From Micractinium sp. NFX-FRZ (Eukaryota; Chlorophyta; Trebouxiophyceae; Chlorellales; Chlorellaceae), in assembly GCA_029339195.1 (NCBI GenBank), contig JAPTJF010000052.1, positions 124,001-188,000 of the forward strand: a stretch of 64,000 nucleotides of DNA. Direction: 5' to 3'. The position numbers and the translations under genes were made by a program. The notes under the pieces were generated by a model. The model saw only the letters and a program-made list of their open reading frames with translations, ran no database searches and had not been told where the DNA came from. This document shows, in pieces, positions 12,869 to 63,195 of this stretch. Position 1 is the first letter of the stretch. Each line of letters starts with the position of its first letter.

Positions 12869-14598
12869 TCACCAGTCGTCGTCCAGCGCCCCCCGGCGCC
12901 GTTGGATGGTCACCTGCGGTTGGCATAGGGCCGGGCGGGGGGATGGCATGCCAATTGGGGCTGTGCCTTGCAGGACTCACCATGCGTTCCACAAGTGGCA
13001 GATAGCGCCATGTGCATGCCGGGCTGCCACTTGCAGTGAGCAAGCCAGTTGGCCCGCAAGCACTCGCCCCACTGCACAGGTGGCACGCTCTCCCGCACCC
13101 ACCAGCCCTGCGCCACGAGCCTTGCATACCCGTCTAGCTGCCTGCGCACGCTTAACTCACGCCTGGCTCCCCCCCGCCCTGCCCACCACACCATGGCACG
13201 GGATTTGCAGCACACCTCACCATGCCCACACACCATCCCAGAGATGCTCACTCCACTCCCACCCCACCCACCCCGCACTCCCCGCACTCCCCAACTGCGT
13301 CTTCTTTGCCTGCTCCGACACACTGCCACAGCTCACCACGTGACATCACATGCCACCAACCAAGCACAAGCACAGGCACTCTTCACACGCCCCACCTTTG
13401 TCTTCTTCTCCGTCTGCTCCGACACCTGCTCCAGCAGCTCAATCAGCCGCGCCTCAGACACCTGCAGTGAGGAGGAGGTGTAACCATGGTGGCACCTGGG
13501 ATGAGGCGCCTGGGGCAGAGGCAGAAGAATGTGGCACCTGCCATGCAGGCAAGCAGCACAGGTGCGGGCCCCAGGCCGCCAAGACCGCGGCACTGTGAGG
13601 TGCACACGTACTGCACCGCCTGTGCACGCGCAAGCGCGCTGCACCAAAGCATGCAAAGCAAAGATTGCAAGGCAAACCGGAGTGCTTGCAGGGCGCAAGC
13701 ACAATCCCCGTTTCCGCCCGCGCCGCACCGCCATGGTCAGCATGCCCCCCCAACCTGACACGACAACCTGCCCTCCCCAAGGATATGACACCACTGTAAA
13801 CATCAACTCTGCTTAATGCCTGGCCCACCTTCTCCTGGATCTGGCCCCGCCGTGCCGCCATGATCAGCATATCCTCCACCCCCCGCGCCTTGTCCGGCTT
13901 CACCAGGCTGATGCGCGCCACTGCAGCAAGGGACGGGTGCAAGGTGGAGAGTGTGGAGGGAGGGGCGACACAAGTGTGGGCGGGTAAAGGCGCGAAGATG
14001 TTGGGAGGAAACATGGGTGGAGGCAGGCAGTGAAGGAGATAGGGTGGGTGGGCGGGTGGGGCCTGCAGCACACCGGGCGCCAAGCTGCAGGCGGGCAGGC
14101 AGCCTGTGTGCCGGCTCCCGCATCACGCTTGTGGTGGTAAAACCCTTGACGGCCCCCGTCCGACACGCACGTTGCCCCACTCACGTCGGTCGCGCGCCGC
14201 CGGTTGCAAGATGCTGTGCAGCATGGACGCCCGCTGCTCCTCCTGCGCCTGCCGAGCCTCCTCCTGCGCCGCCGCCTCCTCTGCGGAGGCTGGCGCCCTG
14301 CCGCCGGGCCCTCCCGCACCGCCGCCCTGCGCCCCCATCAGCTGTGCCATGCGCCGCTGACGGATCGCCTCAAGCTCCGCGTCGTCAGCCTGCACCAGGA
14401 CGGGCGTGTCATATGATTGGAAGAGGTTCACAAGGGCTCAAGAAACGCCACTTGTGGCTGTGTGGGGAATGGAGGCAGGCGGGCGAGGTGCGTGCAGGCA
14501 GGGGCACGGGAGGCGGAAGGCGGAGCGGTCGGCCAGGTTGGGCGGCCGCCACGGGCCCTCCCCTGTTGCCGACACCCAGCCCTGCGCTGGTTCACCAT
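12869..14598 (-). CDS. PDCD5: PDCD5/TFAR19-family DNA-binding protein
   Basis: This is the small conserved helical protein of archaea and eukaryotes. In animals it binds TIP60 and chaperonin and promotes apoptosis; the algal role is unknown. Exons on the minus strand are 14598-14596 (only ATG), 14389-14185, 13920-13829, 13461-13396 and 12913-12869. They total 411 nt (136 residues) with all junctions in frame. Key segments are ADDAELEAIRQRRMAQLMG, ARDRLARISLVKPDKARGVE, MLIMAARRGQIQEK, VSEARLIELLEQVSEQTEKK and VTIQRRRGALDDDW, closely matching the plant family (about 129 residues). Exon 2 begins at ADDAELEAIRQ with no in-frame ATG. The one-codon first exon, ATG directly followed by a GTGAAC donor, restores the family's MAD start. 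It is inferred, not proven. A Gly/Ala-rich insert follows MAQLMG. Only 277 bp separate it from the ureidoglycine aminohydrolase start. Two introns carry exon-edge echoes. Confidence 0.92.
13292..13327 (-). repeat. Intronic echo of PDCD5 exon-4 end
   Basis: Plus-strand text around 13300-13325 repeats, with changes, the real exon-4 end at 13396-13430. Both contain CTGCTCCGACAC preceded by a GTCTTCTT core; starts are 104 bp apart. In transcript sense the copy reads like VSEQ-KK followed by degraded splice-donor sequence. It lies just downstream of the real exon, inside the intron. Confidence 0.75.
13711..13756 (-). repeat. Intronic echo of PDCD5 exon-3 end
   Basis: A degenerate copy of the exon-3 end (real copy near 13840-13880). 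Both contain CCGCCATG-TCAGCAT, and starts are 127 bp apart. Translated in the matching frame it gives GGMLTMAVRRGR, against the real DMLIMAARRGQ. The donor has decayed. Confidence 0.75.
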
Positions 14599-15028
14599 GA
14601 TGTGCGCCCGCCTGTGTGCCGAGGGGCCTCCTCAGTCAAGCTTCAAGGCCGGCCGAGACGCCTGGTTGTTCTGATGGACGGCGGCAGCACACTTGCCACT
14701 CTCAAGGACCTTTGCTTGCGATCAAAGCTCGGCTGGAAATGGGACACTCGGCCTTCTCAGGGGACTGGAGCTTGAACAGAACGCTGTACCGCCCGACCGC
14801 GAGGTACAGCCCCTCCCTCAACCCTTTCGCTCTCAGCCTGCATGCATGTGCAAATTCGCATTCGTTACTGCACCGCTATCCAGGGCCTGCACTCATCGAG
14901 CTCGCTTCGCGCGCAAACTGGAGCTATTGTCGGACATTTGGGTAGCCCAGCTCAACAGGTTGCATTGATTGGAAGCAGGTTGATTCAAAAGCGGTGTTTA
15001 CGTCCGGAAGGCGTCGCTTTCGGCAGCC
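14599..15028. promoter_or_regulatory. Divergent promoter region PDCD5/PNPase
   Basis: 430 bp separate the proposed PDCD5 start (minus) from the PNPase start (plus). No TATA element is evident. The region is less GC-rich than the flanking exons, with A/T-containing stretches near 14740-14770 and 14930-14995. Confidence 0.5.
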
Positions 15029-15403
15029 ATGGTGCTCGGCAGCCGAGCGGCAGCGCTGAGGCGGTGTGCAGCGCTGCTGGCAGGAAGAGGGGCGGAACTT
15101 GAGCGTGAGTGGAAAACAGGACTTGATGAGTGCGGCATTGACAGTGCTCCCTTGGCACTGCCGCCAGCGCCGCCGCCGCTGCCTGTGCCTGTGCTGCCAC
15201 TCCAGCTTCGTTTGCTGATTGGCTGCTGCAACATGCGTGTCACAGCTGCATAGGATTTGGCTACATGCAGCGGCACATGCTCCCGCACCTGACGCTGCCA
15301 CATGCTCATGTGGTCTGGCCCATGCAGTAGAGGCAGCCGCCTGCTGGCTGCGTGCTGCCTCGACATGCCAGGCACGCAGCCTCACCCCTGCAGCCGCCGC
15401 CCT

Positions 15404-15442
<39 letters not shown>

Positions 15443-18400: not shown

Positions 18401-21400
18401 AGCCTCCACCCACCCCCTGCCTGCCCCCCACCCTCCCCTCTTCCCTCCCGCAGGTGGATGCCGTGCCTGTGGTGCATGGCTCCGCCCTGTTCAGCCGCGG
18501 CGAGACGCAGTCGCTGTGCACGGTCACCGTGGGGCGGCGGGGGGAGCAGCAGAAGATGGAGTCGCTGCTGGGCGGGGAGGGCAGCAAGCGGCTGTTTGTC
18601 AACTACTCCTTCCCAGCCTATGCCGTGAACGAGACATCCACGTGTGAGCAAGGCGCCTGGGCTGCACTTGCAGGCTGTAGTTGTTGCGCTGGCTGCAGGG
18701 ACGAAACCCTCCCCTGGCCGCCGCTGCCTGGCTGGCACCGCTTTGCGCCATGTCATCGCCCCGCCTCCACTGACTCAGGCTGCCGCTGCCCCGTGGCATA
18801 GCATGCACTTCTGCCCGCCATCTCCGACCCCACTTCTGTGCCACTGACTGCCTCACTCCCCTGGCTCGCTCCACCACCTCCCCCTCGCTGCGACTGCCAT
18901 GCAGCTGGGCAGCGGAGGGAGTGGGGTCACAGCGAGCTTGCAGAGAAGGCGCTGCTGCCCGTCATTCCCGACGAGGCCGCCTTCCCCTTCAGCTTGCGGC
19001 TGAACGCCGACACGCTGGCGTCCTCGGGCAGCAGCAGCATGGCGGCGGTGAGCGGCGGGGCGCTGGCGCTGGCGGATGCGGGGGTGCCCCTCAAGGCGCT
19101 GGTGGCAGGTGAGCACATTGGAAGGAGGAGAGAGAAGTGGCGGGGGGGTGAGGGGCTACCTGGGCAGGCTGTGGGACAGCTGGCACAGACGCTTGCGGAT
19201 GCGTGGGTGCCGATGAAGGCGCTGGTGGCAGGTGAGCATAAGGGCGCAAGGGGAAATGCCAGGGGAGGCCCTCAGGGGGTACCTGGGGAGATCGGGGGAG
19301 ATGAGACGACGACTGGCGCTAGCAGATGTAGGGGTGCCCGCCAAGGCGCTGTTGGCAGGTTTGAGGGGGCGGGCAGCGATGCACGCCCAGCTGCCTGTCA
19401 TGCTCGCCACCGCTGCTCCTGCACGTTGTGAAATCTGTCATAACAAAGCCCAAGTTAATGTGTGTGTGCGTGTGTGTTTTTACTGCCCCTCCCTGCAGGC
19501 GTGAGCGTGGGCCTCATGACCGAGACAGCCTGGGGCGGTGCGGCGCGCCTGCTGCCTTCAGCGCCAGTGCACGAGGCGACGGAGGTGGCGCCTGTGGGGC
19601 GGTACGAGCTGCTCACAGATCTGCAGGTGCGGCATGGCATGTGTGGCGCAGCAGGCGCAGCACGGTGGCTGAGGTGGCGCCAGCAGGGCGGTGCCGTATG
19701 CTTGCAGACCGGCAAATGTATCATCCTGGGGTTTAGGGCGTAGCATGCACACTGGGGAGGGCCAGCAAGCACATGTGGCAGAGGTAGCTTGCCATCGTGT
19801 TGGCACGCCGTACTCACACATATGGTGCACGTACTGCAGTGCTGCAAGGTTTGATTGCGCCACCTTCCTCAACCTACCCTTTCCTTCCGTGCAGGGGATG
19901 GAGGACCAGCTGGGAGATATGGACCTCAAAGTGGCAGGCAAGGAGAGGGCAGGCTGTTTTGGATGGTTGGGGGTGGAGACCACCCAGGAAAGGCAGAGAG
20001 CAGCATCCAGGGCAGTGCCGAGTGGCAGAGCTGGCTGGGCAGGAGGCAGGACAGGCTTGCGTTCCCCGCGCGCTCTCCGGCGCCTGCACCTGCCCCAGCA
20101 CTTCCGCTTACGCCCGCAACACCGCTCTAGTCACTGGAGGGACTCAGAGTGGCATCACCGCCCGCCAGCTGGACGTGCAGCTGTACTGCACAAGGTGGTG
20201 TGCTGTACTGCCATCCTTGCCACCTCAACCCGGGGCCCTGCCTATGCACGCATACTCGCTGCCTGCAGGCACGCGGCAGGGCATCACCGCCTGCCAGCTG
20301 GACGTGAAGCTGTACGGCGGTGTACCGCTGGAGATACTGGAGCAGGCGCTTGCTGCCGCCGCCCGGGGGCGCGCAACAGTGCTGGCGGCCATGGAGGCGG
20401 CGCTGCCAAAGGTGGGTGTGGTGTGGTGTGGTGTGCTGTGCTGTGCTGTGCTGTGCTGTGCTGTGCTGTGCTGACCTGTGCTGCTGCGCTATGATGCGGC
20501 GTGCAACAGTGGTGGCAGCCGTGAAGGCGGCGCTCCCAGATGTGGGTGCGCGGCCGTGTTGTGCTGTGCCATGGATTGCCGCCTTCGCTGTGTCTGGCAG
20601 AGCGTGCAGCTGCTGGTGATTGCTTCTGCAACGCACACCCTTCACCCACCCCACCCCAACCCCTTCAGGAGCGCCCCGCCCATGCGCCCGCCTTTGGCAG
20701 CGTGAGGGTGCCAGCGACGATGATTGGGCGGGTAATTGGCACCGGGGGCAGCGTGCTGCGGGAGCTGGAGGAGGCGTATGGGGCGCGGGTGGAGATTGAC
20801 GACTCAGGTGGGTGGGTGGCTGGGCTGCTGGTGGGGCATGCATTGGCTTTGTCAACCGCCATGTGAAAACGTTGATAGAAGCCTTGAAATACGTGCTAAG
20901 GGGGCGCTGGCTGCCCGTGTGGAGATGTATGGCTTGGGTCCGTGGGAGTAGCTGTGTGTCTATTGAGGGATCTTGCGCAGTGTGTGTGGGCAGGCAACAC
21001 CTGCCTGTGGTAGCAGCAGCAGCGGTGACCTGCTGCTGCTCAGGCACTGCTCATAATCGGACCATGCGGTGCAGTGCACACGCCCACTCAGTGGTCCGCT
21101 TCCCTCCCCCCCGCCTGCTGCCCGGGAGCCTCTGGCATGCCCGGAGGCCCCTTCCGCCCCTCACTGGCTCATGCACTGTGTCCCCTTCCTCCCATCCGTG
21201 CCGACCCACCCCACCAATGCTCATGCGCTGCACCTCCTCCCCCCCCGCCGCTCCTGTCCACCCCTCCCCTCCCTCCAGGTGTGGTCAGCATATTTGCCCC
21301 GAGCCAGGAGAGCTACAAGAAGGCGTCAGAGAGGGTGCTGAACCTGGCGGGGGAGAGCGTCAAGGCAAGTGGCTCCAGCTGCCTGGGGAGGGGTTGAGCC

Positions 21401-23648: not shown

Positions 23649-23685
<37 letters not shown>

Positions 23686-28146: not shown

Positions 28147-29540
28147 ATGGCCGCGGGCAGCGTCCTGCACATGGTCATTGTGGGGGCGGAGGACGTGCCA
28201 TTGTATGAGGCCGACCTGAGCGCCAAGAGCACCGACGCGAGCGGGCGGGAGGTGCGCCGTTGCGGGGCGGGCGGCAGGTGCCCAAAGTCGGGCGTGCGGG
28301 CTGTTGGGGAAAGTGATCAACGGCCCAGGTGGAACTAAGCAAATGCTGCCGTAGGACCTGGAGTTTGGTGCGCAACACAGCCAGCTGTGCAGGTTGGTGT
28401 TGCCCAGCTGCTCACCCCGGAATCGCTACGTCCTGCCTCCCTCCCCCCGCCTGCGCTGCAGGAGCGTCCGCAGTATCTGTACCACTTTGTGCTGCATGCT
28501 GCTCTGGATGCAGTGGAGGAGCAGGAGTGGCACTCCAACTCCATGCACCTGGGGGTGGTGGACCGGTTCAACAACCTGCAGGTAGGGCGGGCTTGAGGGG
28601 CGGCAGAGGGCACAAGTATGAAGTGGGCCAGCATGTAGTGGCGGCCTGCAGAGCTTTGTGGAGGCAGGCTGAATGCACCATCATGTGGTTCAATGTGGAG
28701 TTCTCCATGCCAGGGATGTTTGACTGTGAGCTGGGACTTATTCGGCTAGGTGTGCTAGGGCAAATTGCGTGCTCGGTTGTGTTCAGGTTGTGCCCAGCAG
28801 GGTGCCTGGGACGTGTGTAGGTGTGTGCTGTGGGGCAGTTCGTGCACACAAGCGATGACTGGGTTGTGTTCAGGATGTGCCCAGCAGGGTGCCTGGTACA
28901 CATGTTCAGGCTCGCGCCCCCGCTTCCCCACGCCCACGCCACCCCACACCGCATGCAGGTGTCTGCCTTCACCACCGCCGCGCACGTCCGCTTCCTGCTG
29001 CTGCACGACGGCCGCAGCGACGACCTGGTCAAGTCCTTCTTCAGGGATGTGTATGAGCTCTACCTGCGGGTGAGGGGGCAGGGAGGGGCTGGTGGGGGGA
29101 GGGGTGTGTGCGAGCTGTATTTGCAGAAGATCTGGGGCATGGGGAGTGGCAACCTGTTTCTGCTACACTTGGCTTGGTTTTCTTTCCCCGGAGCGCGCGG
29201 GAGTCGGACCTGGGGGCAGGCGGCAGTTGAGGTCTAGGCCGGTGCTATCCGGGCGGCCGGCCGGGAGGCATGCTGCTCAACATGCAGAAGAGACGGCTGG
29301 TGAACAGCGGTGACAAGAGGGCTGCAGAGGGTGCCACAGTGTGCTCCGTGGAGGTCCCCGTTCCCCTTGCATGACTTGCTTCTCTTGATCATTCCCCACC
29401 CACCCTCCTGCACAACCCTCTCCTGCCGTTTTGGCACATGGCAGGTCATGCTGAACCCCTTCCACACAGCCACCACCAAAATCACGGCGCCTCTCTTCCA
29501 CCAGAAAGTGCGCCAGCTGGCGCGCAACTACTTCCGGTGA
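28147..29540 (+). CDS. TRAPPC2: TRAPP complex subunit 2 (sedlin/Trs20)
   Basis: A core TRAPP subunit with a longin-like fold, involved in ER-Golgi and Golgi tethering. Exons 28147-28251, 28462-28581, 28959-29069 and 29445-29540 total 432 nt (143 residues, all phase 0), close to human sedlin (140). Recognisable segments are VLHMVIVGAEDVPLYEADL, YLYHFVLHAALDAVEEQEW, SNSMHLGVVDRFNNLQ, VSAFTTAAHVRFLLLHDGRS, SFFRDVYELYLR and the end VMLNPFHTATTKI...QLARNYFR. Exon junctions have clean GT-AG sites. Intron 2 contains an 87-bp tandem duplication (28776 and 28863). A TGTAA lies at 30109-30113, 569 nt past the stop. Confidence 0.96.
28776..28905 (+). repeat. 87-bp intronic tandem duplication in TRAPPC2
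   Basis: GTTGTGTTCAGG(T/A)TGTGCCC followed by AGCAGGGTGCCTGG occurs at 28776 and again at 28863. Unlike the other intronic repeats described here, it does not obviously copy an exon edge. Confidence 0.85.
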
Positions 29541-36498: not shown

Positions 36499-36540
<42 letters not shown>

Positions 36541-40694: not shown

Positions 40695-43600
40695 ATGCCG
40701 CCCGGCTCGCCCGGCGAGCTCTCGGAACTCAGCGTGCAGGGCATCGGGTATGGCTCCCGACTAGTCTCGCCGCCTGGGAGCCCGGGCACACATGGCACCA
40801 GCTTCGCGCAGCCAGTCGTCTCGGAGTGGACAGCGGGCCGGCCGGCGGTGCGTCCTGGATCAGCACCGCTTGCAGGAGAAGCGGGCACCGCAGCAGCACG
40901 CGCAGGGGTGCGCTGCGCATCGGCCGCCGCCTCCCCAGCCGCCACCCCACGACCGCCGCTAGCGCTGTCGGTGTTGGCCTCGGAGGTAGTGCGCATTCAC
41001 ATCAACACGCTGCCGCCGCAGCATTGTGTTGCAGGAGTGGGCAGAGATGGGCCAGCAATCGCGTGTGCCACTCCGGCAGTGCGCACAGCAGAGGCGCAGG
41101 CACAGGTGCCGTCGCCCAAGCAGCTGGGCGTCGACTTGGCGCCTGCAGCGGCAGCTTCGCTGGAGCAGCAGGAGGTTGGGGAGCATGGAGATGTGGCAGC
41201 GGAGGAGGAGGCACACGCGCGAGGCCTGCAGCAGCACCCTGTGGCATCACCTGGCATTGAAGAAGCGGAGCCAGCGTCACCCGGGGCAGTTCCCTGGGCG
41301 GCAGCAGAGCGGCAGTGGCTGCAGCAACAGGCGGCGTACCGTGTCGCTGCCGACCCATCATCTGATGAGGAGTGCCAGGAAGGCCTCTGCTCTCCACTTG
41401 CTGACAGCGCTTCTGCCACTGGAGTCCTGCCTGTGCTGGTAGGGGAGGGCAGCCCAGGAGGCGCACCCACCAGCCCTCCCGTGGGCCAGCGAGGCGCAGC
41501 GGATGGATGGTGCGGGGCAGCAGGGGTCGCCCCAGGGGCAGCTGGACCTGAACAGGCACACGCTGGGGAGCAACAGGACGAGCAGCAGCCCGCTGCAGCG
41601 CTGCTGCCTCTGCAGGCACAGCTGCAGCCGGAGGAGGAGGCTGAATTAGATGGGGCAGGCCAGCAAAGTGCTGCGGATGTGTGGTGCTGGGCAGCAGAGA
41701 CTGCACAGGAAACAGCTGGTGTGCAGGACACACTTCTTGAGGAACAGCAGCAGGAGGAGGAGGAGCCTGCCGCAGCACTGCTGCCTCAACAGGCGCAGCT
41801 GCAGCGGGAGCTGGAAGCTGAACCAGATGCAGACAGTGGAGGTGGGAGCACAGCAGAGCAGTTACCCCTGGCACCACAGCCCAACCCAGCACTGCCACCC
41901 CCCTCGCAGCAGCAGCAGCAGATGTCACCGGTGCAGCAGATGGCATTGGTGGCAGCGCCGGCACCTGTGCTGCCACCCTCTCCGCTGGTCACATTCCCAG
42001 TGCAGCAGCTGCAGGCCGTGCTGGGCAGCGGGCTGAGCAACATGCGTCACCGCCTGCAGAACGCAGCAGAGCGGGAGGGTGCCCTCAGGTAGGCTTCAGA
42101 GTGTGCGCACCAGGGTGCACCATGTTGGTTGGGCTGTCCTGTCAGCCCCTTACTCCCGTGGCCCCATTGCATTGTCCCGCTGGCCTCTCAGTGTGCCTTG
42201 CCCCGCCTTATGTTGTGCAGGATGGAGAGCGAGATGGCAGCTGTGGAGCGGGAGGCGCTGGTGCAGGCGCGTGCGTTTGCCGAGGCGGGCCTGGCTGCAG
42301 AGCGCACCGCACGTCTGGCAGCGGAACAGGAGTTGCGGCAGCTGGCGGCACAAGTGGAGGTGGGTGGGATGGGATGTCGGCATGCAGTGTACATCTGGCA
42401 CGTGCAAGTGCAGTGGAGCCTTCGTGCAAGCGATTGGAGTGAGCAGGAGGGAGTGCAAGAGCGTGTCCTACTTGCCTGCTTGTGTCTCTGCCCGCCTGCA
42501 GGACGGGCACCGAGCGTGGGAGGAGCAGCTGGCAGAGGGTCAGGGGCAGCTGAGGGTGGCGCGCTCAGCGCTGCGTGCCCTGGAGAAGAAAGTGACCGGC
42601 CTGCAGGCAGAGCTCCAGGTGGAGCAGGCCCGGCGGCAGGCGGCTGAGCAGCAAGCAGAGCAGGCCAAGCAGCACGAGGCCCAGCTGCTTGCACTCCTGG
42701 AGGCGGAGCGTGCGGGGCGGCAGCGGCAGCAGGAGCAGCAGGCACAGCAGCAGCGGCAGGCGCAGCAGCAGGCACAGCAGCGGCGGCAGGCACAGCAGCA
42801 GGAACAGCAGCGGCAGGAGGCACATCAGCAGGAACACAAATTGCAGCAGGTGCTGCAGCAGGAGGCGCAGCGCCAGCAGGCCCAGCGGCAAGAGGCCTGG
42901 TTGCTGCAAGAGCAGCAGCTCCTTCCACAGCAGCAGCAGCAGCAGCTGGCATCGGGGCCAGCAGCAGATGCAGTGCACATGCCGCCCGCTGGCATCCAGC
43001 ATGCCAACAGGACGCCCGTCCCCGCTGCGCAGCCAGCTCAATCGCAGGGTGCCACCAGTCGCGGCCTGGGCGGCGTGGCCTCTGATGCTGTGCTGCTGCA
43101 CCACATGCAGGAGCTGCAGCAGGAGCTGGCAGCACTTAAAGCGGGTGCCCGGCATAGCGCCGTGCCTGCTCCACCTGCTCCGCAGCCTGCAGTTGCGGTG
43201 CCACAGCCAGCAGGGGGCGGGCATCCAGGCCTGCAGGCGGCGTCGGCCTACCTCCCCGCTCCCGGTGTGCAGGGCACACCTGGCATGCAGGCACTTGCAG
43301 GCAGCACAGCGGGGCAGCCCTGGCAGCAGCAGCTGCATGGGCAGCAGCCTCTGTCACTGCGGATGCCCTCTCTGGGGCGGACGCCTTCACAGGGGCAGCC
43401 CCCGGGCATCCCCAGCAGCAGCCCTGTGAGGTAAGCCATGGATTTGGTGTTGATTATTGATGGGCCTGACGAGCGCCGTGTGCCGCACGCTGCTGCATGC
43501 TGCTGCCGCCTCCCTGCTTGCCCCACCACCACGCCCCACACTGCACACATTGCAGGGTGCCTGGTCCCACACAGCCTGTGCTGGCAGAGGTGCGCAGCTG

Positions 43601-45620: not shown

Positions 45621-45625
45621 TGTAA
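45621..45625 (+). terminator. TGTAA poly(A) signal of the Gln-rich gene
   Basis: Context GCTCTGTAAGG, 113 nt after the stop and 267 nt before the end of the convergent RING-CH gene. Confidence 0.55.
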
Positions 45626-49189: not shown

Positions 49190-49230
<41 letters not shown>

Positions 49231-50976: not shown

Positions 50977-50981
50977 TTACA
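50977..50981 (-). terminator. TGTAA poly(A) signal of the alpha/beta-hydrolase gene
   Basis: TTACA on the plus strand (context TCGTTACAGC) reads TGTAA for the minus-strand hydrolase gene, 228 nt beyond its stop. The rest of 50715-51208 is 3' UTR and promoter space, with no coding exon seen. Confidence 0.45.
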
Positions 50982-51208
50982 GCATGTTGATGCCAATGTA
51001 CGCCTCACATGCAGCCTGCTACAACGCATCATGCACTGCTTGGGCTTGGGTGCCTGCCTCATGTGGTTGGTGTCAGCCGGCAACTGGTGGCCAGTGCGTG
51101 CGCTGTTGGGTGCTCCGTCTGGGCCCCTGCCCAGCTCGGGCTAGCACAGACAGGCATAGTGCCAGGCCCAGTGTCAGCCAGGTACCATGGTACCTTCCCT
51201 GCGCCCAT

Positions 51209-54200
51209 TCAGGCTGCTCCCAGGCCCAGCTCCAGCACAAAGGAAGCCATGAAGTCGAGCAGGACGTGGGGGGCCTCCTCGTGGCTCAGGTGCCCGCTCA
51301 GCGGCAGCACCGCCAGCCGCGGCGCCACGGCACCCAGCCGCTCAGCTATCCTGCAGGGCGGCGGAGGGCAGGGGGGCAGAGGGCAGGGGGCAGGCGGACG
51401 GGTGGGGGAGCAGGGGCTGGGAAATGGCAGTGTATGTGTGCCGCTTGAGAGGAGCAAGCCCTGTACCATCCCCGCTTTGGCCCCGCCCCGCTGCGCCTGC
51501 CGCCTGTGCCTGCCCCTTCCTTCCGCCTGCCGGGCAGGGGACCTCGGAACTCCATGCCTGTGCCTGGCAACCCTTTCAGTCCCAGTCCCACCTACCCCCA
51601 CCTACCCCCACCGGCAAACCCTTGCCCCGGCAGCATGCCCACCGCCAATGTTCGCCTGCCCCCCACCTGCTGACCGCGCTGGGCGGCACCATGTGGTCTG
51701 CCTCCCCTGTGGCCACCATCACGGGGAGCCCCGCCTGCACCACGGCATCCAGCAGGCGGGTGCGCTCCAGGGAGTGGATGTCGTTGCGCACGCGGGCCAC
51801 CTGCAAGTTGCGTGGGGGGAGCATAGCTGTCGTGAAGCTTTTGTACTGTTCAGTAGGAGCAGCTTTGAGGAGTGGATGTCGTTGTACCTGCAGGTGCGGT
51901 GTGGGCAGCATGAAGTGGACGTGGCAGCTTTCAGCTTGCAGTGAATTGGGTGGCCGGGGGCGGTCCAGGGGTTGAATGCTACTGCGCATCCAGGCTCCTC
52001 CCCTAGGTGTGGGAGCAGAGTTGGTGGGTTGGGGCAAGGCAGATGGGAGGGACAGAGACCAAGGAGTGCTTTTGCGCAAGGGGCCAAAAGCAAGATGAAA
52101 TGGGGGAGGGGCAGGGGGCAGGGCAGGAGACACGGCACACCAGGGAGGCCGGAGCTACGGCCCCAGGTATCAACACATGGGGCCCTGCACAGCTGGCATT
52201 CCAGCATGCAACCCATGAGCCTCTTGCTTCCGCTTGCCTCGGTGAGCGAGAGGTCCCAGCCCAGCACGCGCAGCGGGCGGCGGTACAGCGCCAGCAGTTC
52301 GGGGGTGAGGTGGCGCTGAGGGTCGGCAAAGGCGCGCCGGTTGGTCACCTGCGACACAGGCCAGCGAAGCAGCATTGCAATCGCATTCCAGCTGGGCAGG
52401 CTCGCAGGCTGGCAGTTGCACATGCAGGCGGTGCAGTGGTCAAGCTCGCCGTCTCAGCAGAGCAGGGTGCCCGTAATGCACAACAGGGGATAGCAGCGCA
52501 GCGCAGTGAGGCCTCACCTCCCCCACTTCGGTGCGCAGCAGGCTCCTCAGCACTCGTCGCCCCAGGCGGCTGTGCGCCAGCACGCGAGCATACTTGGGGG
52601 CCACTGTGCCAGAGAGGTCTGCGAGGGGTGGTGTCAAATCAATGGGTAGATAAAGGTGCAAATCAACAGCACATGTCATTGGGGAGCAGGCGGCAGCATA
52701 GGCCTGCAGTAAACAAAGGTAGACAGGCAGCTGCCGGCTGTTTGGGTTTCAGCCTGGGTTGCACCTGCTGCACCTTGCTTGAGAAGCCTGCCTCCCTGCT
52801 TCCTTGCAACCCATCTCTGCCCTCACTGCCCACCCACACCTGGGTGCAGCAGGATCAGGCCCACAGCCTCCGGCGCCTGCCACATCCCATCCACGTCGCT
52901 CCCGCCAGCACTGCCGCTGATCTCTTCCGACCCCGCCCCGTCCTGACCCGCCGCCTGCTGCTCCTGCGCCGGCGCTTGCTGCAGCTGGCCTGTGCCGTGC
53001 GTTGCTGCCGCTGCCGCCGCCTCCTCCTCCATGCTGCCCAGCAGGCTGCCACTGGGCTGGACGTGTGGCTCCTCCGCCAGCAGGCTACCACCCTCTAGGT
53101 CTTCACCAAGCTCCTCATCTTCTATCAACTCCTCTTCTTCCACGGTTGCCAACAGACTGAGATCCTCCTCTGGCCCCACACCCTGCCCACCGCCCTGCCA
53201 CGCCTCCTGCCACGCCCCGTGCTGCTGCTGCTGCTGCTCCGCCCGCTGCTGCTCCTGCTCCTGCTGCCAGCTCGTGGCGGCCGATGGCGGTGCTGCGCCT
53301 CCCTCCTGTGCGCTGTACCCGCTGTGCTCCCATGGCTCCCGGTCGCTCGTCTGCGGCAGGCAGGCGCAGCAGCAGGCAGCGTCACAGTCTTTCATTTGTT
53401 GATTGCTTCATTGAGTCGGGCATGCAGGCTTAGGAGCAATGCGGGTGGCGGCTGCAGTGCAAGTCAGCAAGGACGGGAGCAGTTGCCGGATCAAGCAGCG
53501 GGGCATGCACCAACCACAGAGCACTCCACCCCACCCAGCAGACGTGGCGACATGGCGAGATGCTGCGCAGCAAGCAAGCACTTGCCTGCGAGAGGAAGGA
53601 AACATTGTCGATGAGGCCCGAATGCTGGCCTGGGAGGCCGCCTGCTTCCGCGCTGCCGCTGACTGTGGCGGTCGGCTGCGACAGGAAGGAGGGGTTGTCT
53701 ACAAGGCTGCCCTGCTCTTGGAAGCTCGAGTCCTGGTGCAGTGGCCCCTCCCCCGCAAGCTCCGTGCCGTCCGTGCTGGTTGGCTGCGAGAGGAAGGAGG
53801 GGTTGTCAATCAAGCTGCCCTCTGCTCGGAAGCTGGACTGCTGGTGCAGCGGCCCCTCGCCCGCCGGCTCTGTTTGGCCGCTCACTGTAGTGCTTGGCTG
53901 CGAGAGGTACGAGGGGTTGTCTATAAGACCGGACGGCTGATCCCAGAGGCCGCCCCCATGCTCCGTGCTGCCGCTGGCTGCTGGCGCCTGCTGAGCCTGC
54001 TGCTGCTGCCGTGCTGGCTGCTGCTGCGCCTGCTGTTGTGGTGGCAGTGGCTGCGAGAGGCTGAGCTGCCGGGACACGCACTGCTCTTCCTCCTCCTCCT
54101 GGAAAGGCTCCAGCTGGCTGCCTGCTGCCTGCTGCCCTGCGCCAGCTGGCATGCCAACCCCACCATAGCTGCCCTGCCCCTGCCCTGCTGGGCCACGGGG

Positions 54201-56822
54201 GCGCAGCGGCGAGCGGCGCCGCGCTGCCGCCGGCGAGCGGGCACCCGCCCAGCCGGCCATCAGGCTGCTGCCGGTGGTGGCGCCCGGCCCCATGCGCGGT
54301 TCAATAGAGGCCGGCCACTCCCCTCGGAGCAGCTGCTGCAGCAGGCTGTGCCCACCCTCTGGCATGCTGCTCATCCAGGCCCAGTCCAAGCCCTCGGGTA
54401 GCGACCCCACCGACCCCCGGCGGCGGTGAGCTGCCCCTCCCCAGGGCGCCGCCAGCACCGGCGCTGTGCGCTGCTGCGCGCCCGGCAGCGGGCGCGGCAG
54501 GCTGGCTGCCGTCGGCGACAGCGGGTCGTGGACATAGGTGCCGTCGCCGCCGCCATGGGTGGGCGAGGAGGGGCGGGAGGGGGTGCCCAGGGCGGCCTCC
54601 CTGGCAGCCATGGCTGCTGACATCAGCGCCAGCATGGCGCCGTCGCCGTGCCCCGTCAGCACCACCCGCCGCAGGCCAACCGTGCTGGCCAGCTGCAGAG
54701 TGAGCAGCGCCTGGAACTTCAATGAGTAGGGGTTGTCGTCCAGCGGGGTGCCGGGCTCCACCTGTGGGCGGTCAGTCAGGCCTGCAAGCGGTCCGGCAGG
54801 GCAGGGAGGGCAGGAGGTGTGGGGAAGCAACAGGGACCAGGGAGGCTGGTTGGAAGTGGGGGGGCGGATTCGAAGGCAAGGAAACGAGGGCAAGGCAGGC
54901 AGCCACAAGGGGCAAGCTGGCACAGACATGAGCAGGAGCAGTTTCGTCCATTCACGGCCTGGAGTGAAGCGGCAGCAAGGGCTGTGCAGGGCCCCACTCG
55001 TGTTGAGGCTCACCAAAACCTGGCCTGTCAAACGCGAGCACAGGCAGGCCGCAGGCGTCCGCCAGTGGCTGCATGACGTGGCGCCAGGCAAAGGTGCCGC
55101 CGCCAAACGAGTGAATGAGCACGATGCCGGTGTCCCGTGCGCCGGCAGTGCCGCGGAAGCCCTGCAGGCGGGCAAGCAGGGCGGCCAGGGAAGCAGGTTG
55201 TTGTTGTTATGCTTTCCGTGCTAGAGAAGAGAGGCACCAACAGAGTATCTGGAGCGGCCTTCCAAGTGCTGTTGCAGCTGGGGGGGCGATGCAAGGCATC
55301 ACCACCTCAGGGCACCTTGCCCCCTAGCAACCCTCAGCTTGCCGGCGCCGCAGCAAGCCACAGCTGCCCTCTTCCACCGCCACCAACACACCCGATCACC
55401 GCCTGCCCTCACCAGCGGCAGGGCGAGCTTGTAGTGCACCCTCAGTTCCCCGCACTGCGCCCAGCGGCTGTCAGCATCCGCCAGGTGGGCAGCAGGCACG
55501 TCGTGCTCCGCCGCGCTCTCGCCCACATCGCCGCCGCGCCCCTCCTCTGCCTGCGCCTGCAGCTGCCCCGCCAGCAGCCAAGTGTCCTCCCCCTGCTCCC
55601 AGGGGTATCCCAGGCCGCCCAGCCCGTGCTCCCACCGCTTGCGCGCCCAGCTCACGATGCGCTGCACGGGCAGGCAGGGAGGGAGGACCCGCGCTCAGGC
55701 TGGTGAGCACGTGGCAGGTGCCAAGGTTTGTTTGGGAAGCGTGCTCAGCAGGGCTCTCACCCCTTGGTGGCAAGGCTCACCGCAACACGCTGGCACCCTG
55801 CGAGAACGCCACCCCTTGCAAGCAAGCCGCAGTGGCACTTTGCAGCGCCCCCGCCACGCCAGCAGCTGCAAGCCCCCCGACCTGCTTGCCTGCGCCGCCA
55901 GCACTTGAGCCACGGCGCAGGCCATGTGCACGGCGTACAGCGCAATGAAGGGAGGCCACTGCCGGCGCTCCCACTGGCTGTGGCGCAGGGCATCCAGCTT
56001 CATCAGCCCCAGGGGCAGCGAGACGGCGGCAAACAGCAGCGCCGTCAGGCGGGCCGGCCTGCAGGTTGCGCCGGGGGCAGAGGAAGGGCACCGGCGGTAC
56101 GGGGGTCAGCATGCCACCGGCCTGGCAGCCAGCCAGTCAGCCAGCAGAAGCAGCACCCCAGCCCACCGCCCCAGGCACGCTGTGCATGCTGTGCGCGCTG
56201 TGCCGCACACCTCTGGAACTGCGGCCCCGAGCCCAGGCAGTGCGCGAGCGTGATGCTGGCGCATCGCAGCAGGGACAGCGCGACCACGTCTTCTGCCGAC
56301 CCTTGGAAACTGTAGTGAAGCTGGCGGCTGTGGGTGGGCACTGCATTGGGCACGGCCGCCCAGTAGATGGCCAGTATGCAGGCGGCCTCGGCGGCTGCCA
56401 GCGTGGGCGGCGCCTGAAGGGGGGCGGGCAGCGCTGGGGTGCTGGGTTTGGAAGGGCGGGGGAATGCAGGCAAGGAGAAGGCGCTGCAGGCATACGGGAA
56501 TTCACAAAGAGAGTCGACAAGCAACCACCCTACATGTCCGCCCACGCACCATGCTGTGCAAGCTGCCCAGCGCGCAGGTGCACAGGAAGCGGCAGGCGGC
56601 CGCGCAGCGCAGCAGAGACTCTGGGGCGCGTGATGCTGTTGAAGTGGCAGCGCCGGACCGCGCCCGCTCCTCTTTCTCCTGCCGCAGCTCCTCTGCCACT
56701 TGATCCATTCTCAGGGTGATGATGGGCTCCCGACGCAGCAAGGCCTGCACCGGAGGCGCCAGCTGGGCGCCCCCTGGCGGCGGCTGCATGATGGACGCAC
56801 GTGACTCACGCCCTTGATGCAT
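51209..56822 (-). CDS. Alpha/beta-hydrolase-fold membrane protein with repeat-containing insertion
   Basis: The start is ATG 56822 (alternative in-frame ATG 56789). An N-terminal region with hydrophobic segments (LTALLFAAVSLPLGLM, FIALYAVHMACAVAQVLAAQ) suggests membrane anchoring. The hydrolase core begins DTGIVLIHSFGGGTFAWRHV (about 55130; oxyanion HSFGGG), then VLAFDRPGFGLTDRP and the elbow strand VVLTGHGDGAMLALMSAAM (about 54670-54615). An inserted low-complexity stretch of roughly 500 residues (54600-52840) includes four DNPSFLSQP-type repeats, Gln runs and an acidic segment (LLATVEEEELIEDEELGEDL). The core resumes with SGTVAPKYARVLAHSRLGRR, ADPQRHLTPELLALYRRPLR, LPVMVATGEADHMVPPSAVS (acid Asp) and LPLSGHLSHEEAPHVLLDFM (base His), ending at the TGA 51211-51209. 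The nucleophile position in G-H-G-D-G is Gly, not Ser. Plant relatives I recall in this family also have non-Ser elbows, so hydrolase activity is doubtful. An echo of an exon start lies at 51863-51895. Confidence 0.85.
51863..51895 (-). repeat. Intronic echo of an exon start with acceptor
   Basis: In minus-strand sense the copy reads CTGCAG then GTACAACGACATCCACTCC. The real exon start about 98 bp downstream in the transcript reads TTGCAG then GTGGCCCGCGTGCGCAACGA followed by CATCCACTCC. The copy keeps an intact polypyrimidine-CAG acceptor and would translate YNDIHSS against the real RNDIHSL. Confidence 0.85.
53610..53945 (-). repeat. Four coding repeats (DNPSFLSQP units) in the hydrolase insertion
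   Basis: About 45-residue units containing (L/I)(I/V)DNPS(F/Y)LSQP, a Ser/Thr-rich stretch, and AGEGPLHQ(Q/D)SSF occur three times. A fourth diverged copy ends LIDNVSFLSQ. DNA copies are 110-140 bp apart and still similar, indicating recent tandem expansion within the exon. Confidence 0.85.
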
Positions 56823-57857: not shown

Positions 57858-59574
57858 ATGGAGCCTCTGGGCGGAGGGAGCAAGCCGCTGCGTGCGGCTT
57901 GCAGGCCCGCCACGCGGCACCGCAAGCGGCTGCAGAGCTGCAGCGACACCGAGAGCTGCTCGCCGGCAGACCCCGCGCCGCCGCTGCTCAAGGTGTGGGG
58001 TGGTGCAGGCGGCAGTGTGGGGGACCTCTTGAGCGGGGGCTGTGACGGGGCACGTGCGTAGGGAGGCAATGCCGCTGCGGCTGGCAAGCCGGTGCTTTAT
58101 GTAATTGGAGATACTGGCGATGCAGCTGCCTGTGCTGCTCCTGCACTCTCCCTTGCTGTCACGGGCGGCGCTCAGATGTGCCCAAAGCTTCCATGCAAGC
58201 GCTCCTTGGTCACCCTCCTGCCCTGCCCTGCACCACCACCCTTCCCCTTGTGCAGCGCACACGGCGCAAGGCCAACGGCGGCAGCACGGCGGGTGCTGAG
58301 CGTGGTGGCAGTGACGCCACCGCCACAGCGGCAGCGGTGGCTCCGACCACGCCCACCGCTGCAGATGCCCCTGCCGAGGGCCTCTGCCCTCACGAGCTGT
58401 CCCTCTTTGTGCGCTGGCACGCCGAGGGTGGCGGCGTGCGCGTCAACTGCCTGCGCCTCAACCCCTTCTCAACCATTGACGAGCTGAGGGGGTTGTCGCG
58501 CCGCCTGGTCAAGTCGGCATTCGCTGATGCCGCCTCCCTGCCAGATTACCTGGTGAGAGAGCGATGAGCGTGGGGTGGGGTGCTAGCATTGGGTGCGTGC
58601 GATCACTTGTGCTGAAACGCATGGCAAACTGTGTGTTTGTGCGGTGAGTGTGCCCGATCACATGCAAGTTCCACGGCATGGCGACTGGCCTGGTCATATG
58701 CCACCTGCTCCCCACTTCATGCCACCCTGTACCGCCGCCGATCTGCCCTACTTGGTACAAGCTCTCCACTGCACAACGGCCGTGCGGCCTGATCATATGC
58801 AACGTGCTTTTTCATAACACACACTTATACGTCCCACCCTCCCTCCCGCAGGTCTGCCCCGAGTGGTACAAGTTTTCTCCCGCTGAGCAGCTGGTGTCTC
58901 TGCCGGGCGACATTGCTCGCACCGAGTTCCGGCTGGCGGTGACGCTGGAGGGGTGGGAGTACACGCTGTGCGAGCGCACGCTGCCCGGCACGCCAGACCC
59001 GGAGCGCAAGCTTCTCGTCACGGTGCGAGTGGATTGTAGCGGGGCTGGCCTGGGTGCACAGTGGTGGTGGGGGCGGCTGTGATGGATGCAGGGTGTGGTG
59101 GGCTGGACAGTCATGAGTGCAGGCTGCTGACCGCTGAGAGGGTTGCATGTGCAAAGGTTACGGCAGCATATGGGTTGCTACCCGTCTGTTTCTGGGGGTG
59201 ATGCAGTGGTGCCCCCGACCGCAGTAGCTAGGCCCGCCCTCCTCTCACCCATGGTGCATGCACATTCTCCCCCCTTCCCATGTTCTGACCTGCAGCTGGC
59301 GGAATTCGAGAGTGACGCCGTGACTGTGTCCGACCGCCAGTACGTCGCCCGCCTGCTCTCCTACCCCACCGTCTGCGTGAAGCGCGCCTTCCTGGACGCC
59401 GCCGTGGCGGCGCTGCGGGAGGGGCGCGCCCCCGGCGGCGGCGGCACCAGCAGCAGCAGCAGCGCCGGCGACGGCGCCGCGTCAGGTGGCGGTGGTGAAG
59501 AGCCAGAGGGGGAGGAGGCAGTGGGGGAGGAGGCGTGCAGCCGCCCGCCCTCACCCAGCCTCTCCTCCGCCTGA
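57858..59574 (+). CDS. Conserved-looking protein of unknown function (293 residues)
   Basis: Four exons (57858-57992, 58256-58552, 58852-59022, 59296-59574) all in phase 0 give 293 residues from ATG 57858 (MEPLGGGSKPLRAACRPATR). Disordered N- and C-terminal tails flank a central region that looks folded: HELSLFVRWHAEGGGVRVNC, LNPFSTIDELRGLSRRLVKS, VCPEWYKFSPAEQLVSLPGD, FRLAVTLEGWEYTLCERTLP and VSDRQYVARLLSYPTVCVKR. The C-terminus is Gly/Ser/Glu-rich with a GGGG-SSSSS stretch. I do not recognise a family or catalytic motif. Further 5' exons are possible. Intron 2 carries an echo of the exon-3 start. TGTAA at 60589-60593 would give a 3' UTR of about 1 kb. Confidence 0.8.
58723..58770 (+). repeat. 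Intronic echo of exon-3 start
   Basis: ATCTGCCCTACTTGGTACAA at 58741 copies the real exon start GTCTGCCCCGAGTGGTACAA at 58852, 111 bp downstream. It is preceded in both by a CCACCCT pyrimidine stretch. Further upstream GATCACATGCAAG and GATCATATGCAAC mark the same repeat period. The acceptor AG of the real copy is GA in the echo. Confidence 0.85.
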
Positions 59575-60833: not shown

Positions 60834-63195
60834 TCAGCCTCTCCGCACAAAGGTGCGCTCCCCAGTTTCAACCACCACCAGGTCGCCCGTCTGCACAAAG
60901 GGAGGCACCTGGATCTGCGGGGCAACAAGGGAAGGTGGGAGGGTGGACAGACGGATGAAAAGTGAGGGATGGGTGCAGGGGCGGTGCATGGCAGCGCAAA
61001 CCGGAAGCCCTGCTCCCACCGCGCACGTCCCCACACCACCCTGGTCGCCCCCCACCTGCCCGCCTGGCGTGGCCAGCCCGGCATGCAGCCAAGCCCAGCC
61101 CAGGCCAGCCCAGCAAGCGGTTGGCAATGCGCCATGTGGCACCCCACCTCGATGCCGCCCTCGCACACCGCCCGCTTGTAGGAGGGCGCCGCCGTTTCCC
61201 CCTTCATGGTGGGGGCCGCCTCCACCACCGCCAGCGTCACGTGGTTGGGCACCTGCACACTTGGTGAGGTGGGGGTGGGGGGGCAGGCAGTCGGGTGAAC
61301 AAAGGCAGGCGGAAGGGCTTCGGTGCCCCTCTCCATTCTCAAAGCATGTGCATGCTGTGCATGCTGGGCGGGGGCGCACCTCCCCGGTGACAGGTGTGTC
61401 GCTGGTGCCGTGGAAGTTGAGGGTCACCTCCAGCCCCTCCTTCAGGAAGTCGGCCGCCTCGCCAAACACCTCCCTGTGCCCACACACGGGCATGGCAAGA
61501 AAGAAGGGTCAGACAGGGAGATGGCAGCTGGGCAGCAATGGACACCCAGCCTCACGTCATCGCCTCTACCGGAGGTGCTTCATACATGTCTGAAACAATC
61601 GGCAATCACGCTAAACAGTCCCCTGGCGAGGGGGGGGTGGGAGGGAGTGGCCAACAGGTGGCGCAACAAGGAGCGCTGGGCAGCACAGGCCAGGGTGGGC
61701 GCTGAGGGAGGCCGGCTAACCCACAGGGCTGCAGAAGACATGGGAATCGGTGCTGAGGGTCTCGCACGCAAGTCCACACCCACCTGTCCAACGCCGGCTG
61801 TTCGTGTTTCTAAGCGACAGACCCGCAGCTTCATCCACAACAGCGACAACAACTGCGTAGGCAGGGCCAGAAACACAACACCCACCTGTCCACCGGCAGC
61901 TGCTCGTAGCTCTCCGGGTCCATGCAGTGAACCTGGCTGCCTGCAGGGTGTGTGCGGCGGGAGGTGGGTGAAGTGAGTGTGCGTGAGCAGTGGGAGTGCA
62001 GCGCACTTGGCTGCCTGCGTGCGATGAGAGGTTGCTTGCAGAGAGCGCACCCGACTTTGGCCTGAGACAAACCGGAACACGGCCCTCACACACGCCAGAC
62101 CGCCCACCTCCCAACCCACCCTCGGTGTAGCGGCGCTAGAGCTTGCGCCCCTCTGGACACGGATGCCCGCCCCTACACTTCCTTCCCTAACAGCGGGGTG
62201 CAGCCTCTCACTTGACAGCCACCTCCCAACCCACCCTCGGTGTACAGGCACTGGAACTTGCGCCCCTCCAGCCGCACATGCTGCACCAAGTCAGAGGGTC
62301 GGAACTTGGCTGGGTGCTTGGCCTTGGTCACGATGTCACGCAGCTCGAGGTTGACGTTGCCCAGCTGGCGCTGCAGGGTGCAGCAGAGTGCAGGGGGTAG
62401 CAGCGTGGGCCGTGTGCACAGCTTGGGGGTCACGCAGCTCAGAGTAGACGCCGCCCAGCGCACGCCGCAGAAGACACAGTGCAGTGCAGAGGTGTCGGCG
62501 TCGGTGGCATGGTCAAGCAAAGCGGCAATCTGTTGAGCAGGACAGCAGTCGCAGCAATGGTGACTGCAGCAGTGCAGAAGTACAGGCAGGCAGGCAGGCA
62601 TGACGGCGCGGGCGTGCGGGCGGTGGGCCACTCACGCCCATGGCTCGGTTCTGCAGGCTCACAACTTGCAGCAGCTTGCCCTGGTGCTCTATCACGTTGC
62701 CCACGCGCAGCTGCAGCGTGGAAGTGAGTCGGTTGCTAGGTTGTTGAGGCAGTCATCTTGGCGACACGCATTCGCGGGGGCCACAGCACACGTGGGGTGG
62801 GTGAGGTGGGGTGGCGCAGCAGGTGGCATGGGTTGGGGACAGCTGGCAAGCGCTTGATGCAGGCTGTCTGTGGAGGCTGCTGCTGCTCCTTATGTGGCTG
62901 ATTGACCTAGTTTAGGGATGAAATGCACGGAGAGGACGGCTTGGAGCTGACGTCCGCTCTTGACAGCCTGCGATGGTCCCGCTCCCCCGACTGCTGCCTG
63001 TGGCGGCGGCGGCGGCAGACCTACCCAGGCGCCTGCCAGGATCCCGCGCACCTCATTAGCCTGCTTCTTCACCCCTCTCAGCTGCATGAGCTGAGTGAGG
63101 GCTGGTACCGCCTGCCCAAACGCCGTCACCTCGTTGAGAGGCCCTGCATTGCAGAGCAGGCTCCTTAGCTTCAACAGCTGCTGCAATCCACGCAT
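60834..63195 (-). CDS. EFP: Organelle translation elongation factor P
   Basis: EF-P relieves ribosome stalling at polyproline. This copy resembles plant mitochondrial/plastid EF-P. Seven exons (63195-63025, 62710-62636, 62370-62235, 61940-61886, 61473-61380, 61252-61148, 60914-60834) give 238 residues in frame, consisting of bacterial EF-P (188) plus an N-terminal extension of about 55. Domain I: LRVGNVIEHQGKLLQVVSLQ then NRAMG-RQLGNVNLELRDI; domain II: GRKFQCLYTEGGSQVHCMDP and SYEQLPVDREVFGEAADFLK; domain III: VPNHVTLAVVEAAPTMKGET, then IQVPPFVQTGDLVVVETGER. The exon 2/3 junction falls in the tip loop that carries Lys34 in bacteria; Arg is the only basic residue type there (NRAMGRQL). The N-terminus MRGLQQLLKLRSLLCNAG fits an organelle presequence. 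Introns 3 and 4 contain echoes of the preceding exon ends. Confidence 0.95.
61780..61815 (-). repeat. Intronic echo of EF-P exon-4 end
   Basis: In transcript sense the copy reads GTTGGACAG|GTGGGTGTG, matching the real exon end GGTGGACAG|GTGGGTGTT, about 92 bp apart. The donor is intact in both. Confidence 0.85.
62105..62158 (-). repeat. Intronic echo of EF-P exon-3 end with in-frame stop
   Basis: Copy and original are 115 bp apart. Both run through GAGGGGCGCAAG-TTC/CTC and TACACCGAGGGTGGGTTGGG, then AGGTGG. The echo changes CAG to TAG, so the matching frame (GRKL-stop) would terminate. The donor GTGGGTTGG is unchanged. Confidence 0.9.

What the first reader, a model, noticed from the sequence alone, without database searches (positions are those of the whole stretch)
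12869..63195. Exon-edge 'echoes': ~90-130-bp tandem duplications straddling exon-intron boundaries in many genes
In at least five unrelated genes (PDCD5, PNPase, the alpha/beta hydrolase, the 293-residue protein, EF-P) an intron contains one or two degenerate copies of the adjacent exon's end or start, together with its splice site. At least ten sets were seen, with periods 89, 92, 98, 104, 111, 115, 123-127, 127, 129 and 130 bp. Copies lie downstream of donor-side exons and upstream of acceptor-side exons, as expected for tandem duplication of a unit spanning the junction. Some keep a perfect donor or acceptor, and one has an in-frame stop. The narrow period and recurrence suggest a genome-wide process that lengthens or creates introns and supplies decoy splice sites. 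Seen: the repeats. Inferred: the mechanism.
Basis: partly seen in the sequence, partly recalled or inferred. Interest (0 to 1): 0.78.

Follow-up and report, generated by a model that had tools for sequence, protein, structure and literature searches.

The report
Exon-edge copies inside algal introns
In this green alga's genome, about one sampled intron in six carries a decayed copy of the edge of the neighbouring exon, often with its splice site, placed roughly 105 bases away, which points to a recurrent duplication process that lengthens introns at splice junctions.

Summary
The repeats are real and recur outside the window. In 264 kb (window plus 20 other 10-kb stretches), my gene model gave 440 usable introns; 70 carry an exon-edge echo (window 14 of 124; L013 11 of 19; other stretches 45 of 297). 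At score >=16, 40 of 408 donor edges and 41 of 411 acceptor edges have one, against 0.3% in other genes' introns. Displacement clusters at 80-140 bp; only direct orientation is seen there; pairs wholly between genes are rare (2 against 18.8 expected).

Two corrections. Most copies are not whole tandem units: the exonic edge (median 39 bp) stays similar, while most of the intron half is unrecognisable; four neutral tandem-duplication simulations do not reproduce this. The strong 108/111-bp hydrolase repeat is an in-frame coding repeat.

Echo introns are longer by about one period, so the founding event added DNA. Best reading: old ~105-bp duplications across splice junctions whose exonic half keeps being renewed by copying from the exon. 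Renewal is inferred. Single boundary-crossing duplications are known; the frequency and exon-half bias look new.

The parts
10419..10456 (-).
   Evidence: score 18, 0 of 100 shuffles
13289..13332 (-). Donor echo of PDCD5 exon 13396-13461, P 101
   Evidence: score 21, 0 of 100 shuffles
13713..13750 (-). Donor-side echo of PDCD5 exon 13829-13920, P 127
   Evidence: score 20
18796..18828 (+). Acceptor echo of PNPase exon 18944-19108, P 144 (weak)
   Evidence: score 17
19182..19238 (+). First donor echo of PNPase exon 18944-19108, P 123, GT kept
   Evidence: score 41; this donor junction is gap-free against PNPase structures
19313..19360 (+). Second donor echo of the same exon, P 250
   Evidence: score 34
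19664..19714 (+). Donor-side echo of PNPase exon 19499-19626, P 89, GT lost
   Evidence: score 21; junction gap-free
20134..20189 (+). Acceptor echo of PNPase exon 20269-20411, P 129
   Evidence: score 36; my model has six extra residues at this junction against the homolog
20498..20548 (+). Donor echo of PNPase exon 20269-20411, P 130 (similarity continues to 20613)
   Evidence: score 35
20899..20945 (+). Possible donor echo of PNPase exon 20669-20807, P 130
   Evidence: score 15, 2 of 100 shuffles
28772..28899 (+). Spaced direct repeat inside a Sedlin-type TRAPPC2 intron (41 bp, 93%, P 87); not an exon edge
51869..51884 (-). Short acceptor echo in hydrolase intron 51801-52267, 16 bp exact, P 98; a second at 51955-51995, P 198
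53655..53921 (-). In-frame coding repeat (108/111 bp) in the hydrolase exon 53582-54781; not an intronic echo
58735..58766 (+). Acceptor echo of exon 58852-59022 of the 293-residue gene, P 111
   Evidence: score 16, 0 of 100 shuffles
61776..61805 (-). Donor echo of EF-P exon 61886-61940, P 102, GT kept
   Evidence: score 22
62104..62166 (-). Donor echo of EF-P exon 62235-62370, P 115, GT and 16 intronic bp kept; in-frame stop inside the echo
   Evidence: score 33
61997..62018 (-). Weak acceptor echo of EF-P exon 61886-61940, P 74
   Evidence: score 16
62429..62470 (-). Acceptor echo of EF-P exon 62235-62370, P 94, AG changed to GG
   Evidence: score 22
62235..62370 (-). EF-P exon echoed at both ends; its junctions match six annotated algal EF-P proteins without gaps

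Best explanation
Two steps. (1) Short duplications, about 80-140 bp and centred near 105, arise across splice junctions and insert one extra unit into the intron; they persist because the exon copy next to the coding sequence is still spliced normally. (2) The extra copy then decays, but unevenly: its intron half is lost quickly, while its exonic half and splice-site core stay recognisable because they are now and then overwritten from the conserved exon about 105 bp away (short-tract gene conversion or template switching in the same register). Shown: the copies, their position at splice junctions, orientation and spacing, the added length, and excess similarity of the exonic half over the neutral expectation. 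Inferred: duplication as the founding event, renewal by copying, and a link to genes or transcription from the scarcity of such repeats between genes.
For: Echo introns (P <=160) minus P have medians of 259.5 (30 donor) and 230 bp (31 acceptor); echo-free introns have 226; an event that adds nothing predicts 144 and 137 (holds without L013). Displacement does not depend on match length (slope -0.05, 48 pairs). Identity is 0.55-0.74 over about 40 exonic bp and falls to near background (0.28) within 10-20 intronic bp (conditional on a query of 50 exonic and 8 intronic bp). Intron-half homology remains in 11 of 58 pairs at shuffle p <=0.05, more in pairs with high exonic identity, but in the 17 pairs with exonic identity >=0.85 the mean score is 10.9 against 27.8 expected for neutral duplication. 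Simulated old duplications (age 0.3-0.7) give the right shape but too low identity (median 72% against 80%); pairs with identity >=90%, length >=30 and length/P <0.6 are 6 of 70 real, against 0 of 250, 0 of 84 and 2 of 175 simulated. Acyl-CoA-synthetase-like paralogs: one acceptor has echoes in L005 (P 118) and L027 (P 121) that end at the same exon position within 1 bp, each closest to its own exon (83% and 98%), although the paralog exons are 67% alike over those 42 bp, as concerted evolution predicts. Filler between copies has no second copy in the genome in 2 of 2 tested. Mismatches by codon position are 17/16/23%, so echoes are not clearly coding-constrained.
Against: The mosaic pattern expected from patchy conversion is weak (57 pairs, Stouffer 0.56; p 0.003 only against a simulated control). 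The two paralog echoes could be independent events; L026 shows no echo at that acceptor. No related genome could be read, so age and polarity are not shown. Exon calls come from my own gene finder, checked by homology at only some junctions, with small gaps at three of them. 47 of 58 pairs show no significant intron-half homology. Anchoring is not uniform: of 70 matches, 26 end 0-10 bp into the intron, 17 stop inside the exon, 27 run further.
Confidence: 0.48

Rival explanations
1. Edge-only copying: a template switch or repair event writes just the splice-site core and 25-60 bp of exon into the intron, anchored at the splice motif, without duplicating the intron half.
For: Several highly similar pairs are short: L003 41 bp at 98%, L027 54 bp at 98%, L017 39 bp at 92%, with no detectable intron-half similarity in L003 and L027. 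Direct orientation only (0 inverted pairs at 60-150 bp and >=28 bits). 26 of 70 matches end 0-10 bp into the intron.
Against: Intron lengths indicate that about one whole period was added, not about 45 bp. 11 of 58 pairs keep intron-half homology. 14 of 70 pairs have length/P >=0.8, that is full tandem units or more.
Confidence: 0.2
2. Echoes are kept by selection as splicing elements (decoy sites, or exonic enhancers that act from the intron).
For: The exonic half outlives its intronic surroundings. Many echoes keep GT (22 of 38) or AG (23 of 36).
Against: Splice dinucleotides are kept no better than the rest of the echo. The L027 echo follows its own exon rather than a family sequence. Codon-position pattern is close to neutral.
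Confidence: 0.14
3. Plain neutral tandem duplication across junctions, seen longer at junctions only because the exon copy does not change.
For: Explains direct orientation, added length, tolerance at junctions and, with a minimum of 45 intronic bp in the unit, part of the limit on exonic extent (above 60 bp: 0.14 simulated, 0.36 without that rule, 0.07 real).
Against: With steady ages it predicts length/P of 0.89-0.98 and about 1.0 at identity >=85%; real values are 0.45 and 0.32. An old burst fits the shape (0.47) but not the identities. It predicts many intergenic pairs; only 2 of 128 lie wholly between predicted genes (7 when loosened to >=26 bits and period 40-300).
Confidence: 0.12
4. 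Artefact of assembly or of the gene finder.
For: L013 has 26 of the 128 repeats and a 100-N gap. The gene model leaves a stop in PNPase at one junction.
Against: Copies are mostly 70-92% identical (10th to 90th percentile), which misassembly does not produce. Results hold without L013. EF-P aligns without gaps at its echoed junctions to a structure and to six algal relatives; PDCD5 and PNPase align across theirs with small gaps at three. The repeat finder ran without the gene model.
Confidence: 0.03

Closest known systems
[quoted passage not shown]
   Same: A tandem duplication crosses an intron-exon boundary; part of a copy becomes intronic; splice signals are inherited from the parent boundary.
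   Different: One case, giving a new intron. Here 70 of 440 sampled introns carry exon-edge copies, mostly without a new intron, and mostly only the exonic half is still recognisable.
[quoted passage not shown] seen only as a reference in passages of PMC3443670, otherwise recalled)
   Same: Duplications inside genes as a widespread source of intron change.
   Different: No fixed displacement or exon-half retention is known to me from it; the paper itself was not read.
Novel Drosophila introns by tandem duplication of coding sequence (PMC2891723, outline and abstract read)
   Same: Duplicated exonic sequence ends up in an intron.
   Different: There the duplicated unit is coding sequence with a proto-splice site; here the copy includes an existing splice site.
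Tandem exon duplication and mutually exclusive exons (recalled)
   Same: Exon copies in neighbouring introns.
   Different: Here usually one exon edge with one splice site is copied, the displacement is not held to multiples of three, and coding constraint is not evident.
Introners (PMC9860276, search listing only)
   Same: Many introns affected across a genome.
   Different: No shared element: the copies come from the adjacent exon and the two fillers tested have no other copy.

Membership tests
Tandem genomic duplication across exon-intron boundaries | Copies in direct orientation next to the source | tested here: met
   128 direct pairs at period 60-150; inverted pairs in that range: 0 at >=28 bits
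Tandem genomic duplication across exon-intron boundaries | Unit includes an exon-intron boundary | tested here: met
   Median extent 39 exonic and 6 intronic bp over 70 pairs; 17 of 70 matches stop short of the junction
Tandem genomic duplication across exon-intron boundaries | Similarity over the whole unit (length about equal to period) | tested here: not met
   Median length/P 0.45; only 14 of 70 pairs reach 0.8
Tandem genomic duplication across exon-intron boundaries | Adds one unit of length | tested here: met
   Intron length minus P equals that of echo-free introns, at population level
Tandem genomic duplication across exon-intron boundaries | Absent from a relative that diverged earlier | tested here: inconclusive
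   Only paralogs: L026 shows no acceptor echo where L005 and L027 have one
Introner | Inserted element shared by many loci | tested here: not met
   Fillers of L027 and L003 match only themselves; only 2 fillers tested, and that search skips simple and very common words
Tandem exon duplication | Whole exon with both splice sites, frame kept | tested here: not met
   Edge only in most pairs; P mod 3 = 0/1/2 in 21/30/19; mismatches 17/16/23% by codon position
Functional decoy splice sites | Sites used or bound | not testable with these tools
   No RNA data; GT kept 22 of 38, AG 23 of 36

The most novel reading that the evidence does not exclude
Exon edges are repeatedly and directionally written into the adjacent intron, in register about 105 bp from the splice site, by a gene-specific copying process that recognises splice junctions (possibly through the nascent RNA or the splicing machinery), so that introns hold self-renewing copies of their exons' ends and grow one unit at a time.
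Probability: 0.2. Interest if true: 0.87.

Novelty: new variant of a known kind. Interest (0 to 1): 0.62.

Why it matters
How introns gain length and where new splice sites come from are open questions usually argued from single cases. A genome in which 70 of 440 sampled introns carry exon-edge copies makes the process countable: rate, size, direction, fate of the copied splice sites and any role of transcription or splicing can be measured by comparing sister species. If the exonic half is renewed from the exon, introns would carry concerted, self-updating copies of their exon ends, which would mislead gene prediction and read mapping and could feed alternative splicing.

Tried and rejected
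Inverted copies: sought as a sign of snap-back templated repair, none at 60-150 bp and >=28 bits. Filler as an inserted element: two fillers searched in the genome, no second copy. Neutral tandem duplication under four parameter settings: shape or identity does not fit (one, three). Coding or mutually exclusive exons: codon-position and frame tests negative. Relation of P to exon length: correlations -0.18 and 0.05. Coupling of the two intron ends: 4 introns with echoes at both ends against 3.6 expected. Mosaic test for conversion: weak. Intron-half homology against other loci: mean rank only 0.57 and 0.56. Paralog searches for parts of L017, L009, L006 and L013: L017 matched only itself; the others gave mostly microsatellite or dispersed-repeat matches, and no gene paralog was pursued. 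The crude test that copies straddle predicted junctions more often than random placement failed (40 against 37.6). Rfam (window and L013) and tRNA (window) scans gave nothing.

Literature: listings of searches showed no description of this pattern in Chlorella-type algae. The library lacks most subscription papers, and the Chlorella variabilis NC64A genome paper was not held, so prior description cannot be excluded. Schiml et al. 2016 and Vaughn and Bennetzen 2014, on short tandem duplications from repair in plants, are recalled and were not seen.
Full report
SETTING. The window is G000:C52:124001-188000 of an unnamed 66.07-Mb assembly in 838 contigs.

IS IT REAL. A blastn self-comparison restricted to nearby direct repeats, with simple repeats filtered out, gave 264 pairs at >=28 bits against 27 in one dinucleotide shuffle; periods peak at 85-130 with a weaker group near 205-235. 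A self-trained HMM gene finder (463 introns, 522 exons) placed them. Among 128 pairs with period 60-150, 67 pair an exon or junction copy with an intron copy, against 40.1 +/- 5.5 for random placement (maximum 56 of 500); 29 lie wholly in introns (36.4 expected), 23 wholly in exons (11.2) and 2 wholly between genes (18.8); 3 more pair an exon-side copy with intergenic sequence. The count of copies that straddle a junction is not raised (40 against 37.6). At looser limits (>=26 bits, period 40-300) 7 pairs lie between genes. Of 28 intron-only pairs re-examined at period 60-160, 12 resemble the flanking exon edge and so look like echo-echo pairs, and 8 are full tandems.

EDGE SCAN. For 440 introns with both flanking exons and no N, I compared 50 bp of exon edge plus 8 bp of intron with the intron. 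Score >=16: 40 of 408 donor edges and 41 of 411 acceptor edges; other genes' introns 0.3%; own reverse strand 0.2-0.5%; exon segments 60-118 bp from the junction 3.6% (of 195) and 3.2% (of 190). With score >=17 and simple matches dropped, 38 donor and 36 acceptor echoes remain, in 70 introns: window 14 of 124, L013 11 of 19, other stretches 45 of 297. Displacements lie at 80-140 bp in 23 of 38 and 25 of 36; 9 of 36 acceptor echoes are at 103-105 bp.

ANATOMY. In 70 exon-intron pairs found by blastn (rows dropped: pairs with both copies mainly exonic, with under 15% exon, with the other copy under 60% intron, and one pair without a junction), the exonic extent has median 39 bp (5 of 70 above 60) and the intronic extent median 6 bp; 26 of 70 matches end 0-10 bp into the intron, 17 stop inside the exon, 27 run further. 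Position by position, identity is 0.55-0.74 over about 40 exonic bp and nears background (0.28) within 10-20 bp of intron. The echo keeps GT in 22 of 38 and AG in 23 of 36, about as well as its other bases. Mismatches by codon position are 145/850, 138/845 and 196/849; the period is not frame-keeping. No inverted pair lies at 60-150 bp at >=28 bits.

CHECK OF THE WINDOW EXAMPLES. EF-P is gap-free at its three main echoed junctions against a solved structure and six algal EF-P proteins. PNPase (queried only downstream of a stop that my model leaves at one junction) is gap-free at the donors of exons 18944-19108 and 19499-19626, has six extra residues where exon 20269-20411 begins and a small gap near its end. 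PDCD5 aligns throughout with a two-residue gap near its last echoed donor. The TRAPPC2 model matches Sedlin_N; the 293-residue gene has no Pfam match. Full list of echoes. The 108/111-bp repeat of the hydrolase is in an open frame encoding repeated peptides, so it is not an echo; that gene has a short intronic echo at P 98.

HOW IT AROSE. (a) Added length: for echo introns with P <=160, length minus P has median 259.5 (30 donor) and 230 (31 acceptor), as in echo-free introns (226); if nothing had been added 144 and 137 would be expected. Without L013: 258 and 216, against 141 and 136. (b) Not plain decay: simulated neutral tandem duplications of steady age give length/P 0.95, and 1.00 at identity >=85%; real 0.45 and 0.32. 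With a required 45 bp of intron in the unit, exonic extents above 60 bp fall from 0.36 to 0.14 (real 0.07), but no setting gives the short, highly similar pairs in proportion (6 of 70 real; 0 of 250, 0 of 84, 2 of 175 simulated). An old burst alone fits the shape (length/P 0.47) but has median identity 72% against 80%. (c) Intron half: significant residual homology in 11 of 58 pairs; in 17 pairs with exonic identity >=0.85 the mean local score is 10.9 against 27.8 expected. (d) Paralogs resembling acyl-CoA synthetases (named by eye from the translation, not by a search): at one acceptor L005 has an echo with P 118 and L027 one with P 121 (54 bp, 98%), ending within 1 bp of the same exon position; each is closest to its own exon; L026 shows none. 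At the preceding donor L005 has P 80-81 and L026 P 124. The L027 and L003 fillers have no other copy in the genome. This fits an old echo renewed from its own exon, but two independent events cannot be excluded. (e) A test for mosaic renewal was weak.

CREATION OF INTRONS. L027 intron 820-1127 interrupts an exon that is continuous in L005 and L026 and holds further copies (period 95, three in all) of the upstream exon end, at least two with the donor; there the intron half is also well kept. This is a candidate intron gain by duplication; loss in the other two paralogs is the alternative.

JUDGEMENT. Duplication across a splice junction is a known kind of event (PMC4974935 abstract; PMC3443670 passages; PMC2891723 abstract). 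The frequency, the ~105-bp register, the gene-bound distribution and the survival of mainly the exonic half are, to the extent of my literature searches, not described. The renewal step is an inference that a sister genome would settle.

Noticed in passing
L027:820-1127: An intron absent from two paralogous genes (L005, L026), made up in part of tandem copies (period 95) of the upstream exon end with its donor: a candidate intron gain.
   Followed up: partly
L013:3280-3386: A dispersed element of about 100 bp: 20 other places on 19 contigs, 77-94% identical (capped list), flanked in L013 by 13-bp direct repeats (TGCACATCTCCCC) inside a predicted intron; no Rfam match. Possible small mobile or introner-like element.
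   Followed up: partly
L006:3928-4039: Matches contig C26 at two overlapping places about 70 bp apart (74% and 73%), as if a paralogous exon there had tandem copies.
   Followed up: no
L013:1163-1777: Repeats of 99-100% identity on both sides of a 100-N assembly gap; an unresolved young tandem array or an assembly error. L013 was left out in control counts.
   Followed up: partly
window 849-1792: Long G-rich array with units of about 21-24 bp; its part 1458-1850 reads as repeated peptides in an antisense open frame.
   Followed up: no
window 41484-41829: Direct repeat of 172 bp, 71% identical, period 174; longer unit than the echoes.
   Followed up: no
L005:86-154; L009:1056-1150, 3359-3457, 4861-4937: Microsatellite-like CAGCACAGCG and GGCA repeats with many related copies across the genome.
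   Followed up: no
window 28772-28899: A 41-bp, 93% identical spaced repeat (P 87) inside a TRAPPC2 intron that does not match the flanking exon edges, so not all such repeats come from exon edges.
   Followed up: no
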